DNA from: Anaeroplasma sp.
GTDB taxonomy: Bacteria; Bacillota_I; Bacilli_A; Acholeplasmatales; Anaeroplasmataceae
DNA: 37,146 bases
Assembly: GCA_022768655.1 (NCBI GenBank)
Contig: JALEQD010000045.1
Coordinates: 1 to 37,146, forward strand
Reading direction: 5' to 3'
The notes under the pieces: generated by a model
What the model saw: the letters and a program-made list of their open reading frames with translations, nothing else
Database searches by the model: none
What the model was told of the DNA's origin: nothing
Made by a program: the position numbers and the translations under genes
In this document: one piece after another, positions 1-37,146 of the stretch
Position numbering within the stretch: position 1 is the first letter of the stretch
How the letters are laid out: each line of letters begins with the position of its first letter

Positions 1-284
1 ATTAATTCTAATGATGTTTTTTTAATATCATTTAGATCAGTTGTGCATTTAACAACAAGTGAGTAAGATGAAATACCTGAAACTAAATTTAGTCTTTCAA
101 TAACTAAATCAACATTTTCATCTAATAAATTAATAAAAATACGATCATGCTGATTTTCAATTAAAACATTTAAGCCTTCTAGCTTTTCAGCCATTAATTT
201 ATATAATGTTTTCAAAAAATAAACTTGATTTTTTCCTTTTAAAGTCAAATCTCCAAAACGAACTAAAATTTGATTATAAATCAT
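1..284 (-). CDS. thiI: ThiI, tRNA 4-thiouridine synthase / thiamine sulfurtransferase, N-terminal part (cut by window edge)
   Basis: This is a partial gene running off the left edge; only about 94 N-terminal residues are present. The translation begins MIYNQILVRFGDLTLKGKN, matching the typical ThiI start (hILvRyGEisLKGkN), and continues into the ferredoxin-like and THUMP region. The PP-loop ATPase and any rhodanese domain lie outside the window. ThiI activates uridine-8 of tRNA by adenylation for thiolation and in some bacteria also supplies sulfur for the thiazole of thiamine. The ATG at 282-284 is preceded on the minus strand by a GAGGTG ribosome site (291-296), which fixes the start. A TATAAT -10 lies at 349-354 (minus). 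It is divergent from rpsD. Family assignment rests on the N-terminal motif only. Confidence 0.85.
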   Translation of the reverse strand, partial: MIYNQILVRFGDLTLKGKNQVYFLKTLYKLMAEKLEGLNVLIENQHDRIFINLLDENVDLVIERLNLVSGISSYSLVVKCTTDLNDIKKTSLEL

Positions 285-361
285 CTTATACACCTCATAT
301 TTTTTAGTAACAATAATTAAAATTTTAAATTCCATTTAATAATATCATATTATAAAGAAAT

Positions 362-384
362 TTTCTATACAAATACTATAGAAA
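362..384. promoter_or_regulatory. 8-bp inverted repeat between divergent thiI and rpsD promoters
   Basis: TTTCTATA-N7-TATAGAAA is a perfect inverted repeat located between the thiI -10 (349-354, minus) and the rpsD -35 (399-404). It could be an operator or chance symmetry in AT-rich DNA; no regulator is recognised from the half-site. Confidence 0.3.
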
Positions 385-398
385 TCCAATTTTTAATG

Positions 399-427
399 TT
401 GACATATCTTTTATACTTTGATAAAAT
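399..427 (+). promoter_or_regulatory. rpsD promoter
   Basis: A perfect -35 TTGACA (399-404), a 17-nt spacer and a -10 TAAAAT (422-427) form a sigma-A promoter. Transcription should start near 434, leaving a leader of about 170 nt before rpsD. Confidence 0.8.
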
Positions 428-433
428 GGTATA

Positions 434-604
434 GCGTGGGTAAAAAGCAGCAGCTCAAAAACAATAGTAAATATCTTAAGGCGTCATAGCTTAAATAGTA
501 ACCTTCGCTGCTTGATGGTGAACATTCAGTTTAAGATATCCTATTGAATTTGAGAAGACGTTTTACTCCGAAAAATAATTAATAATTTAGAGGAGGACAT
601 AATA
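434..604 (+). ncRNA. Structured rpsD leader, probable S4 autoregulatory r-leader
   Basis: This 170-nt untranslated leader is strongly base-paired. CTCAAA 454-459 pairs with TTTGAG 549-554, CAATAG 462-467 with CTATTG 541-546, and ATATCTTAA 471-479 with TTAAGATAT 531-539, giving one long arm. AAGCAGC 445-451 pairs with GCTGCTT 507-513 inside that arm's loop, so the fold is a pseudoknot. Firmicute rpsD leaders are known to bind S4 and shut off their own translation; the fold and position fit that role. Ribosome site AGGAGG is at 591-596. The pairing is seen in the sequence; S4 binding is inferred. Confidence 0.7.
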
Positions 605-1204
605 ATGTCAAGATTTACAGGTTCAAGCTGGAAAGTATCTCGTAGATTAAATTATTCTGTCAGTGAAACTGGTAAAGAATTAATCAAAAGAAAATATGCT
701 CCAGGTCAACATGGTGCAAAGCGCACAAAATTAAAAGAATATGGTATTCAGTTACAAGAAAAGCAAAAGGTAAGATTCACTTATGGTGTTTCTGAAAAGC
801 AATTCAGAAAAACTTTCAATGATGCAGCTCGTCAAGAAGGAAAAACTGGTGTTCATTTCTTAGTTTTATTAGAAAGACGTTTAGACAATATCGTTTATCG
901 TTTAGGTTTTGCTTCTACTAGAGCACAAGCTCGTCAATTAGTAAACCATGGTCATATTCTAGTTGATGGTAAGAAGGTTGATATTCCTTCATATCGTTTA
1001 TCAGCTGGTCAAACTATTTCTTTAAAGGAAACTTCTAAGGATTTAGTTATCGTTAAGGCAGCATTAGAAGCTAAGCTTGCTCGTGCTGAATATTTAGCTT
1101 ATGACGAAAATACTAAGGTTGGTACTTTAGTAAGATTACCAGAAAGAAGCGAATTCTTAACTGATATTAATGAACAATTAATTGTCGAATTCTACAACAG
1201 ATAA
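605..1204 (+). CDS. rpsD: 30S ribosomal protein S4
   Basis: S4 binds 16S rRNA at the five-way junction of the 5' domain and nucleates small-subunit assembly; in Firmicutes it also represses its own synthesis. The protein is 199 residues, normal for S4. It begins [15 protein letters not shown], followed by the conserved [10 protein letters not shown] segment, and has the S4 RNA-binding domain in the middle ([27 protein letters not shown]). It lacks the four-cysteine zinc motif near the N-terminus, so it is the C-minus form. As in Bacillus it stands alone instead of sitting in the alpha operon. The ATG is 8 nt after AGGAGG. It is followed directly by an intrinsic terminator. Confidence 0.98.
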
Positions 1205-1229
1205 AAAAAAGCTCATATCGAGCTTTTTT
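1205..1229 (+). terminator. rpsD intrinsic terminator
   Basis: AAAAAAGCTC (1205-1214) pairs with GAGCTTTTTT (1220-1229) around a 5-nt loop, beginning right after the rpsD stop codon, and the run of T continues after a C. Confidence 0.85.
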
Positions 1230-1236
1230 CTTTTTA

Positions 1237-1275
1237 AAATACTAAAGGCGGTGAATTTCACCGCCTTTAGTATTT
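1237..1275. terminator. 18-bp hairpin, likely bidirectional terminator
   Basis: The arms at 1237-1254 and 1258-1275 are perfectly complementary over 18 bp with an ATT loop; the GC-rich core is AAGGCGGTGA/TCACCGCCTT. It lies immediately beyond the stop of the minus-strand micro-ORF and behind the first rpsD terminator, so it can end both transcripts. Confidence 0.75.
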
Positions 1276-1285
1276 AAATTTTATA

Positions 1286-1390
1286 CTATCTTTTAAATAA
1301 TCCTCTACAGTCCTCACCCATAGTTAATAATTTAGCAAACACTGCAACAATAATTACAGATAGTGTAAATGCTAATATATAACTTAACAT
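1286..1390 (-). CDS. 34-residue single-span membrane peptide
   Basis: A micro-ORF with a strong ribosome site (AAAGGAGA on the minus strand, about 8 nt before the ATG at 1388-1390). The product starts MLSYILAFTLSVIIVAVFAK and ends GEDCRGLFKR: one hydrophobic span of roughly 20 residues, then a short charged tail with one cysteine. It has its own -10 (TATAAT at 1429-1434, minus) and is followed by an 18-bp hairpin terminator at 1237-1275, so it looks like an independent transcription unit. No homology is recognised. It may be a small membrane-protein regulator, a toxin-like peptide or a stress peptide; function is unknown. Codon use is normal for the window. Confidence 0.65.
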   Translation of the reverse strand: MLSYILAFTLSVIIVAVFAKLLTMGEDCRGLFKR

Positions 1391-1404
1391 ACAATAATCT
1401 CCTT

Positions 1405-1434
1405 TTGTGATCTATTAATCACAATTAAATTATA
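1405..1434 (-). promoter_or_regulatory. Promoter -10 and 7-bp palindrome upstream of the membrane peptide
   Basis: The minus-strand -10 is TATAAT at 1434-1429. Just downstream is TTGTGAT-N6-ATCACAA (1405-1424), a perfect 7-bp inverted repeat abutting the ribosome site. It could be an operator at the transcription start or an mRNA hairpin limiting translation. No good -35 is seen. Confidence 0.45.
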
Positions 1435-1492
1435 TATCTAAAAAAAATAAATAAATAATGAAAGCATTTTATATTAGAATTGAAAGTGTTTA

Positions 1493-2149
1493 CTATGGAT
1501 TATTATTCATTAAATATTCTTCTACACCATAAAAAATTGAAGTACATAATAAATATTGATAATTAAAATCTAATAATTTTTTTAATTCATCATAATTTGT
1601 CATAAACCCACATTCTACTATTATAGTAGGTATAGATATCTTTTTTAACATATATATGTTATCTTTGACTAAAGGTTTTCTATCCGTATTTTTCATTATT
1701 TTTTTTATATTATTCATAACTTTATCTGCTAAAATACTATTTTCTTTATTGTTAATAGCGTAAAAAACCTGAGCTCCATGATATTGTGAATCAACAAAGC
1801 TATTCATATGAATTGATAAGCATAACATGCTTTGACTTCCATTAATTAATTCTATTCTTTTATTTAAATCATTTCTTTTTATGAATTCATTTTCACATAA
1901 ATCGATATCTTCTTCTCTTGTCATTGATACTATATAACCATTTTCTTCAAAAATCTTTTTTAAACACATTGAAATCTCTAAATTTAAATCACATTCCCTT
2001 TTTCCAAAATATACAGCACCAGGATCATATCCACCATGACCAGCATCAATAATTATTCTTTTTGTATTATTTTGAATGGTAGTTCCATTAACAATAAAAG
2101 TTGATGCAAGACAAATAACAAATGAAATTATAATTAATATTTTTTTCAT
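1493..2149 (-). CDS. N-acetylmuramoyl-L-alanine amidase (Amidase_3, CwlD-like)
   Basis: A 218-residue zinc amidase that would cut the amide bond between N-acetylmuramic acid and the stem peptide. Residues 1-22 form a signal peptide or signal anchor (MKKILIIISFVICLASTFIV). The catalytic domain follows with no additional binding domain: IIIDAGHGGYDPGA holds the first zinc histidine, RECDLNLEIS the glutamate ligand, LSIHMNS the second histidine, and IVECGFMTN the catalytic glutamate. Size and layout resemble B. subtilis CwlD, which acts in spore-cortex muramic-lactam formation, but the match alone does not prove sporulation. No convincing ribosome site is present; a TATAAT at 2155-2160 (minus) lies only 6 nt before the ATG, so the mRNA may be leaderless. 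Confidence 0.88.
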   Translation of the reverse strand: MKKILIIISFVICLASTFIVNGTTIQNNTKRIIIDAGHGGYDPGAVYFGKRECDLNLEISMCLKKIFEENGYIVSMTREEDIDLCENEFIKRNDLNKRIELINGSQSMLCLSIHMNSFVDSQYHGAQVFYAINNKENSILADKVMNNIKKIMKNTDRKPLVKDNIYMLKKISIPTIIVECGFMTNYDELKKLLDFNYQYLLCTSIFYGVEEYLMNNNP

Positions 2150-34881: not shown

Positions 34882-35361
34882 TTAATTCATTATATGAACA
34901 AAAATATATATATGAAATAATAAATAAAAAATAGAAAACAAGCCTTTTACACAAATGAATAAATGAGTGTGCGGCTCTATCTTATCAAATTTATTATTTA
35001 CTTCAACAATCATACAAATAGAGCCATTAGGATCAACTTTAATTTTCTTAAGAAATAGTTTTTCAGGGTTAACCTCAATAAAACCATAAATATATCCAAA
35101 TGTCATACTTTTACTTTTTATTTCGTTTGTTAATAAATTGATTGACCACAACTTGTTTATACGAATATATGAATTATATGTTGAAGTATATAACGTATGT
35201 GTTGAAGCATCATACTTAGAATCCCTATAATCATAATCTAATTTATAACTATTTAATAATTCTAAATTATCATATGAATATACATTAACAATTGAATCTG
35301 TATTTACAACAATTAATATATTAAGAGCAATATCACTTGCAACATAACTCAGGTTTTTCAT
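34882..35361 (-). CDS. Hypothetical protein with propeller-like N-terminal part
   Basis: A 159-residue reading frame. Residues 1-110 show short beta-strand pattern (IVNVYSYDNLELLNSYKLD, DASTHTLYTSTYNSYI) like one or two blades of a WD40/PQQ-type beta-propeller, far too few for a closed fold; the last 30 residues are hydrophobic (FSIFYLLFHIYIFVHIMN) and look unlike the rest. There is a TATAAT at 35396-35391 (minus) but only a weak ribosome site. It could be a genuine small gene or a decayed fragment of a longer propeller gene next to the insertion sequence. Low confidence in function. Confidence 0.4.
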   Translation of the reverse strand: MKNLSYVASDIALNILIVVNTDSIVNVYSYDNLELLNSYKLDYDYRDSKYDASTHTLYTSTYNSYIRINKLWSINLLTNEIKSKSMTFGYIYGFIEVNPEKLFLKKIKVDPNGSICMIVEVNNKFDKIEPHTHLFICVKGLFSIFYLLFHIYIFVHIMN

Positions 35362-35438
35362 TTTAATAAAACTATCTTTTTTAAAATTTTTATTATACCT
35401 TAATACTCTATTTGTTTGAATTAAATAATAATATTTTT

Positions 35439-35446
35439 CATATTAC
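35439..35446. repeat. Left copy of 8-bp direct repeat bounding the IS
   Basis: CATATTAC, identical to 37128-37135. In IS110 elements short identity between target and donor end marks the recombination site. Confidence 0.6.
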
Positions 35447-35468
35447 ACCTCTCTCGTATAATATGTAG

Positions 35469-35725
35469 TGTGGATTTAGGCCTTGGATAAACCTAGCTAC
35501 ATATTGGTATTTTTGAAGTCCTAGTGTTATAATCTTATTTAGATATAACTTGATTAATGTGCTTTCGCCTCCTTGCGGCTAGACCGCTTTTGAAAGCTTG
35601 CAAACCTGCTTGATTGACATATTCCTCTTACCAGTAGTTGTTCACCTGCTTCACTCAATTATCCATGAAGTCAGGATAGTTCTTATTCCCGCGAGGTTGA
35701 GGTTATCTTTCAAGGCTAGGACTTC
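35469..35725 (+). ncRNA. Candidate bridge RNA of the IS110 element
   Basis: The left non-coding end is GC-richer than the genome (35561-35620 has 30 G+C of 60) and folds extensively. A 10-bp helix GAAGTCCTAG (35515-35524) with CTAGGACTTC (35716-35725) encloses the core. Inside are hairpin GTTATA-A-TCT / AGA-TATAAC (35526-35549), GCTTTC (35561-35566) with GAAAGC (35592-35597) containing GCGG/CCGC, and unpaired segments. An 8-bp hairpin (ATATGTAG 35461-35468 with CTACATAT 35497-35504) precedes. IS110 transposases are known to use such a bridge RNA to pair target and donor DNA. ATTGACATATT at 35613-35623 copies the right-end donor sequence and is a plausible donor guide. Confidence 0.7.
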
Positions 35726-35760
35726 ATTTATATCTAATCCAAGAAAGAAGGTATTACCTC

Positions 35761-37017
35761 ATGTCTGTTTTAAATTCTTTATTCGTAGGTATTGATGTTT
35801 CTAAAAATTCTAATCAAGTCTATGCGATGAATTTTGACCAGAAAAAACTACTATCTTTTTCTGCTTCAAATGATTCAGAAGGTGCTTCTAAAATAGAAGC
35901 TAAACTGATAGAATGTTTAAACAAGAATAACTATGAACATGTAGTAATAGTACTTGAGTCTACAGGTATGTACTCTTTCCATATTGCTACATATTTATCA
36001 TCTTCAGAGCTTCTAGCGAAGTATTCTGTACTAGTTTACTGTATCAATCCTAAGACTAGTCAAAATTACCGTAAAAGTTTCTCTGAGATGGATAAAACTG
36101 ATCCTAAAGATTCATATATCTTAGCTGATATGGCTCGTGTAGGTAAAGTTAAAGATTTAACTCCTGTAAAAGGTCCACAAAAACTTGCTTTACAAAGACT
36201 AACTCGTCATCGTAAACATATTTCCGAACAAATTGTTAGAGAAAAATTATATGTTTTAAATAACATTTTCCTTAAATTCTCTGCTTTTGACCGTAAATAT
36301 GATGGTTTATCACCATTTTCTGATCCTTTTACTGCTACTGCACAAGCTATATTACTTGAATATAAATCTCCCGAAGAAATCGTCAATACTTCTATTGAAG
36401 ATTTAACTTCTTTTATTTCTACTGCCTCTAAAAATCGTTTTGCTGATTCCAAAAAGGTAGCTGAAACCTTAACTAAATGTGCTCGTATGTCTTATCGATT
36501 AGATAAAGCCGCTTACGAACCTATTAATACTGCCATTGCTTCATCTTTAGCCATATTAAGGTGCCTTGAAAATGAATTGAAGCATATTGATAAAGAAATT
36601 GCCAACCTATCCAAAGGATTCAATTCTGACGAATATAATTGTCTTATTTCTATTCCTGGTATTGGCCCAACATTCGCTGCTGGAATACTATCTGAAATAG
36701 GCTCAATTAAACAATTTGATGATGAAGAAGCTTTGGCCAAATACGCAGGACTTACATGGCGTCGTCATCAATCAGGCGATGATGAATATGAAGACACTCC
36801 AATGACTAAAACAGGTAACTCTTACCTAAGATATTATATTGTTGAGGCTGCAACAATGGCGGTTCTTCATAATCCAGTTTATACACAATATTATCAAAAG
36901 AAATTTACTGAAGTTAAAACTCATCAACATACTCGCGCTATTGCTTTAACTGCCAGAAAACTTGTAAGATTGATTTATGGATTATTGAGTAAAAATCAAT
37001 TATACAAAGCTAATTAA
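35761..37017 (+). CDS. IS110-family transposase (DEDD RuvC-like and Tnp_20 serine domain)
   Basis: A 418-residue RNA-guided recombinase. The N-terminal RuvC-like (DEDD) domain has FVGIDVSKNSNQV (first Asp, residue 11), VVIVLESTGMY (Glu) and MDKTDPKDSYILADMA (two Asp). A coiled-coil linker follows (LAILRCLENELKHIDKEIANL). The C-terminal Tnp_20 domain starts with ISIPGIGPTFAAGILSEIG and includes MTKTGNSYLRYYIVEAA, where the catalytic serine (GNS) lies. Length and order are complete, with no frameshift. The ATG is 8 or so nt after GAAGG, and the leader holds the candidate bridge RNA. Confidence 0.96.
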   Translation: MSVLNSLFVGIDVSKNSNQVYAMNFDQKKLLSFSASNDSEGASKIEAKLIECLNKNNYEHVVIVLESTGMYSFHIATYLSSSELLAKYSVLVYCINPKTSQNYRKSFSEMDKTDPKDSYILADMARVGKVKDLTPVKGPQKLALQRLTRHRKHISEQIVREKLYVLNNIFLKFSAFDRKYDGLSPFSDPFTATAQAILLEYKSPEEIVNTSIEDLTSFISTASKNRFADSKKVAETLTKCARMSYRLDKAAYEPINTAIASSLAILRCLENELKHIDKEIANLSKGFNSDEYNCLISIPGIGPTFAAGILSEIGSIKQFDDEEALAKYAGLTWRRHQSGDDEYEDTPMTKTGNSYLRYYIVEAATMAVLHNPVYTQYYQKKFTEVKTHQHTRAIALTARKLVRLIYGLLSKNQLYKAN

Positions 37018-37049
37018 TTTATTTTTGATTAACCATACCTCGTTTTAAA

Positions 37050-37072
37050 AACCTATCAAGCATAGGTTCTTT
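37050..37072 (+). terminator. Hairpin after the transposase gene
   Basis: AACCTAT (37050-37056) pairs with ATAGGTT (37062-37068), followed by CTTTTG; a modest terminator within the right end of the IS. Confidence 0.55.
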
Positions 37073-37127
37073 TGTGTTGTTCCTTATATGTCTATATATC
37101 TAAAAATTATTTATTTTTATCTATTGA

Positions 37128-37135
37128 CATATTAC
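37128..37135. repeat. Right copy of 8-bp direct repeat bounding the IS
   Basis: CATATTAC, overlapping the end of TTGACA (37124-37129); identical to 35439-35446. Confidence 0.6.
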
Positions 37136-37146
37136 CGGTATGCTTA

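What the first reader, a model, noticed from the sequence alone, without database searches (positions are those of the whole stretch)
35439..37135. IS110 ends would join into a promoter that drives a folded left-end RNA
The right end has TTGACA (37124-37129) and the left end TATAAT (35457-35462). Joining at the shared CATATTAC gives a 16-nt spacer, so only the excised circle would have a full promoter. This is the arrangement known for bridge-RNA IS110 elements, and the RNA that would be made (35469 onward) folds with a 10-bp closing helix. The element seems intact and may be active.
Basis: partly seen in the sequence, partly recalled or inferred. Interest (0 to 1): 0.75.

Follow-up and report, generated by a model that had tools for sequence, protein, structure and literature searches.

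The report
Bridge-RNA transposon that targets ribosome-binding sites
This is an ordinary, apparently intact IS110 jumping gene whose ends, once joined in a circle, would form a promoter for a guide RNA, and comparison with its relatives shows that this guide RNA steers it into the ribosome-binding site just in front of other genes, including genes the cell probably cannot do without.

Summary
The promoter halves, the 10-bp helix and the intact IS110 recombinase gene are really there. The proposed joint is wrong. Relatives and an empty site put the ends at a CT core: left CT 35453-35454, right CT 37143-37144, element 1692 bp counting both cores. CATATTAC is a coincidence; on the left it lies outside the element. 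The correct joint, TTGACA-TATTACCGGTATGCTCG-TATAAT, has a 17-nt spacer, conserved in 8 of 8 elements measured at both ends, down to about 42% protein identity.

The left-end RNA has the bridge-RNA layout: 5' hairpin, target loop, donor loop. Across elements the target-loop guides match each element's own flanks (left guide P about 1e-4, right guide P about 5e-4, by permutation).

The guide reads (C)UCCUU, like the anti-Shine-Dalgarno tail of 16S rRNA. The target is the reverse complement of a Shine-Dalgarno site: of 47 left flanks, 34 (72%) have an ATG opening a frame 4-13 nt away, against 3.6% in controls. Copies in a relative sit in the ribosome-binding sites of metK, thrS and tyrS. IS900 is known to target translation-initiation signals, so this is a new member of a known kind. 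No RNA or circle was shown.

The parts
35453..37144 (+). whole IS110 element, counting the CT core at both ends (1692 bp)
   Evidence: ends of relatives and of 8 copies in G078; duplication-free empty site of a relative's copy
35453..35454 (+). left CT core
   Evidence: left ends of the family begin CTCGTATAAT with differing flanks
37143..37144 (+). right CT core
   Evidence: right ends of relatives share ...CT and differ after CT or CTT
37124..37129 (+). -35 box TTGACA in the right end
   Evidence: invariant in the 8 elements measured, 17 nt from TATAAT after joining at CT
35457..35462 (+). -10 box TATAAT in the left end
   Evidence: conserved in all left ends of the clade
35460..35505 (+). 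5' hairpin (AATATGTAG 35460-35468 / CTACATATT 35497-35505; TAGG 35477-35480 / CCTA 35492-35495); its outer arm overlaps the -10 box
   Evidence: compensatory changes in the upper stem
35515..35725 (+). bridge RNA body enclosed by the closing helix 35515-35524 / 35716-35725
   Evidence: pairs with changes on both sides
35563..35574 (+). left target guide TTTCGCC TC-CT-T of the target loop (core guide CT 35572-35573)
   Evidence: guide-flank match across 17 element groups, P about 1e-4; in this copy it fits the flank only with a one-base shift
35575..35587 (+). inner hairpin of the target loop GCGG-CTAGA-CCGC
   Evidence: kept through different sequences in relatives (read)
35588..35596 (+). right target guide TTTTGAAAG (reverse complement CTTTCAAAA; right flank CTTACAATA, 7 of 9)
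   Evidence: P about 5e-4 over 8 groups
35628..35637 (+). left donor guide TTACCAGTAG of the donor loop (right end reads ATTACCGGTATG)
   Evidence: differs between groups together with the right end
35691..35695 (+). proposed right donor guide GCGAG, complementary to CTCG(T) of the left end
   Evidence: invariant in alignment A1; no covariation to test
35761..37017 (+). IS110 recombinase, 418 aa; catalytic D12, E66, D114, D117, S338 by alignment with IS621
35428..35452 (-). left target flank: on the minus strand AGAGGTG-TAAT-ATG, a Shine-Dalgarno-like site and start codon of the neighbouring ORF (frame breaks after six codons)
   Evidence: 34 of 47 flanks of the clade have an ATG with an open frame at this distance

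Best explanation
An IS110-family element of the left-end (IS621-like) type. In the integrated form the -35 and -10 boxes lie at opposite ends. Excision at the two CT cores gives a circle whose junction carries TTGACA-17-TATAAT; this would transcribe a left-end bridge RNA (roughly 35469 to 35725 or later) and may read on into the recombinase gene. The donor loop of the RNA pairs with the junction, the target loop with a new site, and the recombinase exchanges strands at CT without a target duplication. The target guide carries (C)UCCUU and so recognises Shine-Dalgarno DNA: the element lands in the ribosome-binding site of a gene reading away from its left end, between the upstream part of that site and the start codon. 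Because its left end begins CTCG, it restores GAG|GAG in front of that gene. Shown here in silico: boundaries, conserved spacer, guides that vary with the flanks, start-codon context, one exact duplication-free empty site of a relative. Inferred: transcription, circle formation, catalysis, and how the downstream genes stay expressed.
For: Recombinase family and catalytic residues. Ends fixed by relatives and by eight copies in G078. 17-nt junction spacer in 8 of 8 elements. Empty site with one CT and no duplication. Conserved and covarying RNA helices. Left guide matches own flank, P 5e-5 to 2e-4; right guide P about 5e-4. ATG plus open frame next to 34 of 47 insertions against 3.6% control, any start codon 40 of 47 against 7.5%. 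Published IS621 mechanism: PMC11208160, PMC11208158.
Against: No RNA, circle or movement was observed. In the window copy the left guide fits the flank only with a one-base shift, and its right flank rests on a 141-base contig overlap. No empty site for this copy was found. The whole RNA folds only modestly better than shuffles. The right guides were picked by eye from the anatomy before scoring.
Confidence: 0.88

Rival explanations
1. One reading: the ends recombine at the shared CATATTAC, giving a 16-nt spacer.
For: The octamer is present at both places and gives an acceptable spacer.
Against: Relatives lack it on the left, their left similarity starts at CTCG, and their right similarity runs beyond it to CT. 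It occurs six times in the window.
Confidence: 0.03
2. A hybrid promoter in the integrated form: the host flank supplies a -35 (TTTTCA, from the reversed ATGAAAA start) for the element's own -10, so that no circle is needed to make the RNA.
For: In the window TTTTCA lies 16 nt before TATAAT, 10 of 12 matches.
Against: Across 47 flanks the best -35 match is no better than at control offsets: 2.62 against 2.56, and 17% against 15% with four or more matches.
Confidence: 0.1
3. The start-codon context is a by-product of survival: insertions in coding sequence are lost and only those between genes are seen, while the true target is just CTCCT.
For: Insertions inside essential genes would be lost, and CTCCT is a short target.
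Against: Orientation and spacing to the start codon are nearly fixed (mostly 10-11 nt, always on the left-end side), and the variable guide bases match the flanks beyond CTC. The element always enters on the side that restores GAG|GAG.
Confidence: 0.25

Closest known systems
IS621 (IS110 family, bridge RNA; PMC11208160, PMC11208158)
   Same: CT core, -35 in the right end and -10 in the left end joined in the circle, left-end RNA with 5' stem-loop, target loop and donor loop, DEDD plus serine recombinase
   Different: Longer left end (308 nt before the gene) with an extra long closing helix around both loops; different guides and target; only weak sequence similarity of the recombinases
IS900 of Mycobacterium avium subsp. 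paratuberculosis (IS110 family; PMC8141618, citing Doran et al. 1997)
   Same: Target motif CATGNNNNNNTCTCCTT, a start codon and Shine-Dalgarno site on the opposite strand; no target duplication
   Different: Different host phylum. The IS900 RNA was not examined here, and no hed-like reverse ORF was looked for in this element
ISEc11 and ISEc21 with seekRNA (IS1111 and IS110 types; PMC11187229)
   Same: Circle with a promoter formed by the abutted ends; a non-coding RNA guides the target; insertion without duplication
   Different: ISEc11 has its RNA downstream of the gene; ISEc21's target is a site inside IS3-family transposase genes

Membership tests
IS110 family | DEDD RuvC-like domain plus Transposase_20 domain | tested here: met
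   PF01548 E 1.1e-27 and PF02371 E 3.4e-23
IS110 family | catalytic residues corresponding to D11, E60, D102, D105 and S241 of IS621 | tested here: met
   D12, E66, D114, D117, S338 by alignment with 8wt6
IS110 family | insertion at a CT-type core without target duplication | tested here: met
   shown on a relative's copy: G078 thrS site against the empty site in G077; not shown for the window copy
IS621-type bridge-RNA elements | junction promoter with -35 in the right end and -10 in the left end | tested here: met
   17-nt spacer in 8 of 8 elements; activity not tested
IS621-type bridge-RNA elements | left-end RNA with 5' stem-loop, target loop and donor loop | tested here: met
   structure by alignment; the RNA itself was not observed
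IS621-type bridge-RNA elements | target guides complementary to the flanks | tested here: met
   permutation tests over element groups; the window copy fits on the left only with a one-base shift
IS621-type bridge-RNA elements | donor guides complementary to the joined ends | tested here: inconclusive
   left donor guide follows the right end in two or three groups; right donor guide invariant
IS110 family | circular intermediate | not testable with these tools
   needs PCR or reads
IS1111 group | long non-coding region downstream of the transposase gene | tested here: not met
   127 nt follow the ORF (37018-37144) against 308 nt before it
IS1111 group | subterminal inverted repeats | not tested
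   no search for such repeats was run
IS900-like target choice | insertion between start codon and Shine-Dalgarno site on the opposite strand | tested here: met
   34 of 47 flanks with ATG and open frame; consensus CTC-CT-T

The most novel reading that the evidence does not exclude
A clade of IS110 elements uses a bridge-RNA guide that mimics the anti-Shine-Dalgarno tail of 16S rRNA, so that it can enter the ribosome-binding site of almost any gene in many hosts. By restoring GAG|GAG next to the start codon, and by supplying outward or read-through transcription, it becomes the new leader of genes such as metK, thrS and tyrS, cutting them off from their own regulation (a T-box for thrS).
Probability: 0.35. 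Interest if true: 0.7.

Novelty: new member of a known kind. Interest (0 to 1): 0.5.

Why it matters
Bridge-RNA recombinases are being developed as programmable DNA-insertion tools. A natural clade with readable guides, many copies and empty sites gives a test of the guide rules outside the IS621 group. It also gives a guide-level explanation of ribosome-binding-site targeting, which for IS900 I found described only as a motif. Insertions between the ribosome-binding site and its upstream leader in single-copy genes that are normally essential raise a testable question: what now drives these genes?

Tried and rejected
Viral-contig scan for the recombinase: no relatives. Rfam: no match to the left end. 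Whole-RNA folding against shuffles: weak, z -1.61. Empty site of the window copy in its genus: none with both halves. Hybrid flank promoter: not supported. Outward promoter in the left end toward the target gene: no strong match in the near relatives; only the H. coagulans element has TTGACA-19-TATTAT. The first run of the right-guide permutation missed four right flanks because of a pattern error and gave P 0.13-0.25 on four groups; it was repeated with all eight. Literature: no paper found that links bridge-RNA guides with Shine-Dalgarno sites, in an open-access library only. No structure prediction was run, since the homology to IS621 is clear by sequence.

Full report
What was claimed.

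What is in the sequence. The ORF 35761-37017 encodes 418 aa with both IS110 domains. Its catalytic residues align with IS621: D12, E66, D114, D117 and S338. The recombinase is present once in the assembled genome G000. The window's contig (C174) shares exactly 141 bases with the start of contig C6, which supplies the right flank CT-TACAATAAG.

Boundaries. A relative with 89% protein identity (L004) aligns from CTCGTATAAT on the left, window 35453, to ...TTGACATATTACCAGTATACTT on the right, beyond CATATTAC. Nearly all left ends of the clade begin CTCGTATAAT or CTCATATAAT, and their flanks differ. A single-contig genome of the same order (G078) holds eight copies; seven right ends share ...TTGACATCTTTACCGGTTGCTT and differ after it, and one (L083) diverges a few bases earlier. 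The core is therefore CT, at 35453-35454 and 37143-37144. CATATTAC is found six times in the window on both strands and is a coincidence. Joined at CT, the spacer is 17 nt in the window element, L004, L074, L076, L077, L078, the G078 copies and the Heyndrickxia coagulans element, 8 of 8. The last encodes a recombinase only about 42% identical.

Empty site. Joining the flanks of the G078 copy next to thrS finds the uninterrupted site in G077 with 95% identity over 300 bases, reading ...CATTTTCCCACTC|CTTTTTTAAATAAA..., with a single CT and no duplication. More distant relatives in the genus also have uninterrupted thrS and tyrS leaders. No empty site was found for the window copy.

The left-end RNA. 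The alignment of nine left ends (A1) gives a 5' hairpin and a 10-11-bp closing helix (35515-35524/35716-35725) around two loops; 13 of 50 predicted pairs show changes on both sides. The small hairpin in the first loop is kept through different sequences (GCGG/CCGC, GTGG/CCAC, GTAG/CTAC, GCAC/GTGC; read by eye). This matches the layout published for bridge RNAs: 5' stem-loop, then target loop, then donor loop (PMC11208160; PMC11208158). The outer arm of the 5' hairpin overlaps the -10 box, so only part of it can be in an RNA that starts at the junction promoter.

Guides. In 17 element groups, the bases before the core guide in the target loop match the left flank of the same element better than that of other elements (7 positions: 4.55 against 3.51, P 1e-4; P 5e-5 to 2e-4 for 5 to 9 positions). 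The other side of the loop, reverse-complemented, matches the right flank (P 5.5e-4 for +1 to +5, 8 groups). The right-guide segments were picked by eye from the anatomy before scoring. For the window, CTTTCAAAA matches CTTACAATA at 7 of 9. The donor loop holds a sequence that follows the right end: ACCGGTTG with ACCGGTTG in one group, ACCCGTAGG with ACCGTAGG in H. coagulans. GCGAG (35691-35695) is invariant and complementary to CTCG(T) of the left end, but cannot be tested by covariation.

Target. The flank consensus at -3 to -1 is CTC (42, 37 and 43 of 47), followed by the core CT and usually T: CTC-CT-T is the reverse complement of AAGGAG. On the opposite strand, 34 of 47 flanks have an ATG 4-13 nt away that opens a frame of at least 40 codons, and 40 of 47 have some start codon, against 3.6% and 7.5% of random positions. 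Some of the 47 come from copies of the same element, but their sites differ. The guide letters (CACUCCUU, CCUCCUU) resemble the 16S rRNA anti-Shine-Dalgarno tail (general knowledge). IS900 has the motif CATGNNNNNNTCTCCTT (PMC8141618), and that paper cites Doran et al. [quoted passage not shown] The target class is therefore known; the guide-level explanation was not found in the library searched.

Consequences. In G078 the targeted genes include metK, thrS and tyrS. metK and tyrS have no second copy there; thrS was not checked. A T-box leader lies on the far side of the element from thrS; the tyrS flank contains a similar T-box-like sequence (read; not reported by Rfam at the curated cut-off). 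These genes are normally essential, so they are presumably still expressed, and the element's left end restores GAG|GAG before the start codon. What drives transcription is open: no consistent strong outward promoter was found.

What does not fit. In the window copy the left guide fits the flank only with a one-base shift (TACACCTC against TTCGCCTC, 6 of 8), and L018 shows the same. The window's target ORF stops after six codons, while another frame is open down to 34882. Transcription, circle formation and movement are not shown.

Verdict. The element is a new member of the IS110 bridge-RNA group with IS900-like target choice.

Noticed in passing
window 34882-35441, minus strand: The ORF at the target start codon (ATGAAAAATATTATTATTTAA) stops after six codons, while a neighbouring frame is open down to 34882; this looks like a frameshift in the run of A just after the start codon, or an assembly error.
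   Followed up: partly
L003 (G000:C6) 139-1503, minus strand: The gene on the other side of the element is an AAA_14/DUF4143 ATPase whose TAA stop codon overlaps the CT core, so the element lies between a stop codon and the next gene's start codon without cutting either frame.
   Followed up: partly
window 37006-37146 and G000:C6 1-141: The contig ends in an exact 141-base overlap with C6, which suggests a branch in the assembly graph right at the right end of the element; it could reflect strain variation or another copy.
   Followed up: no
L051, L061, L063, L066, L069, L072: Left-end remnants with the conserved CTCGTATAAT start but without a matching right end nearby (right ends were sought in four of these six), apparently decayed copies.
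   Followed up: partly
L022, L023, L026, L034, L038: IS110 relatives with only about 30% protein identity also have CTCGTATAAT left ends, mostly with CTC or CAC flanks and some near a start codon, so the end sequence and target type may be much wider than this clade.
   Followed up: no
L005 (Heyndrickxia coagulans element), left end, minus strand: TTGACA-19-TATTAT (11 of 12) points outward toward the target gene and ends 5 nt from the core; a candidate outward promoter with a long spacer.
   Followed up: no
L065 and L018: L065 has CATCG in place of CTCG at the left end, and L018 has CA in place of CT in the target-loop core guide with a one-base offset of the flank; possible change of core or slippage.
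   Followed up: no
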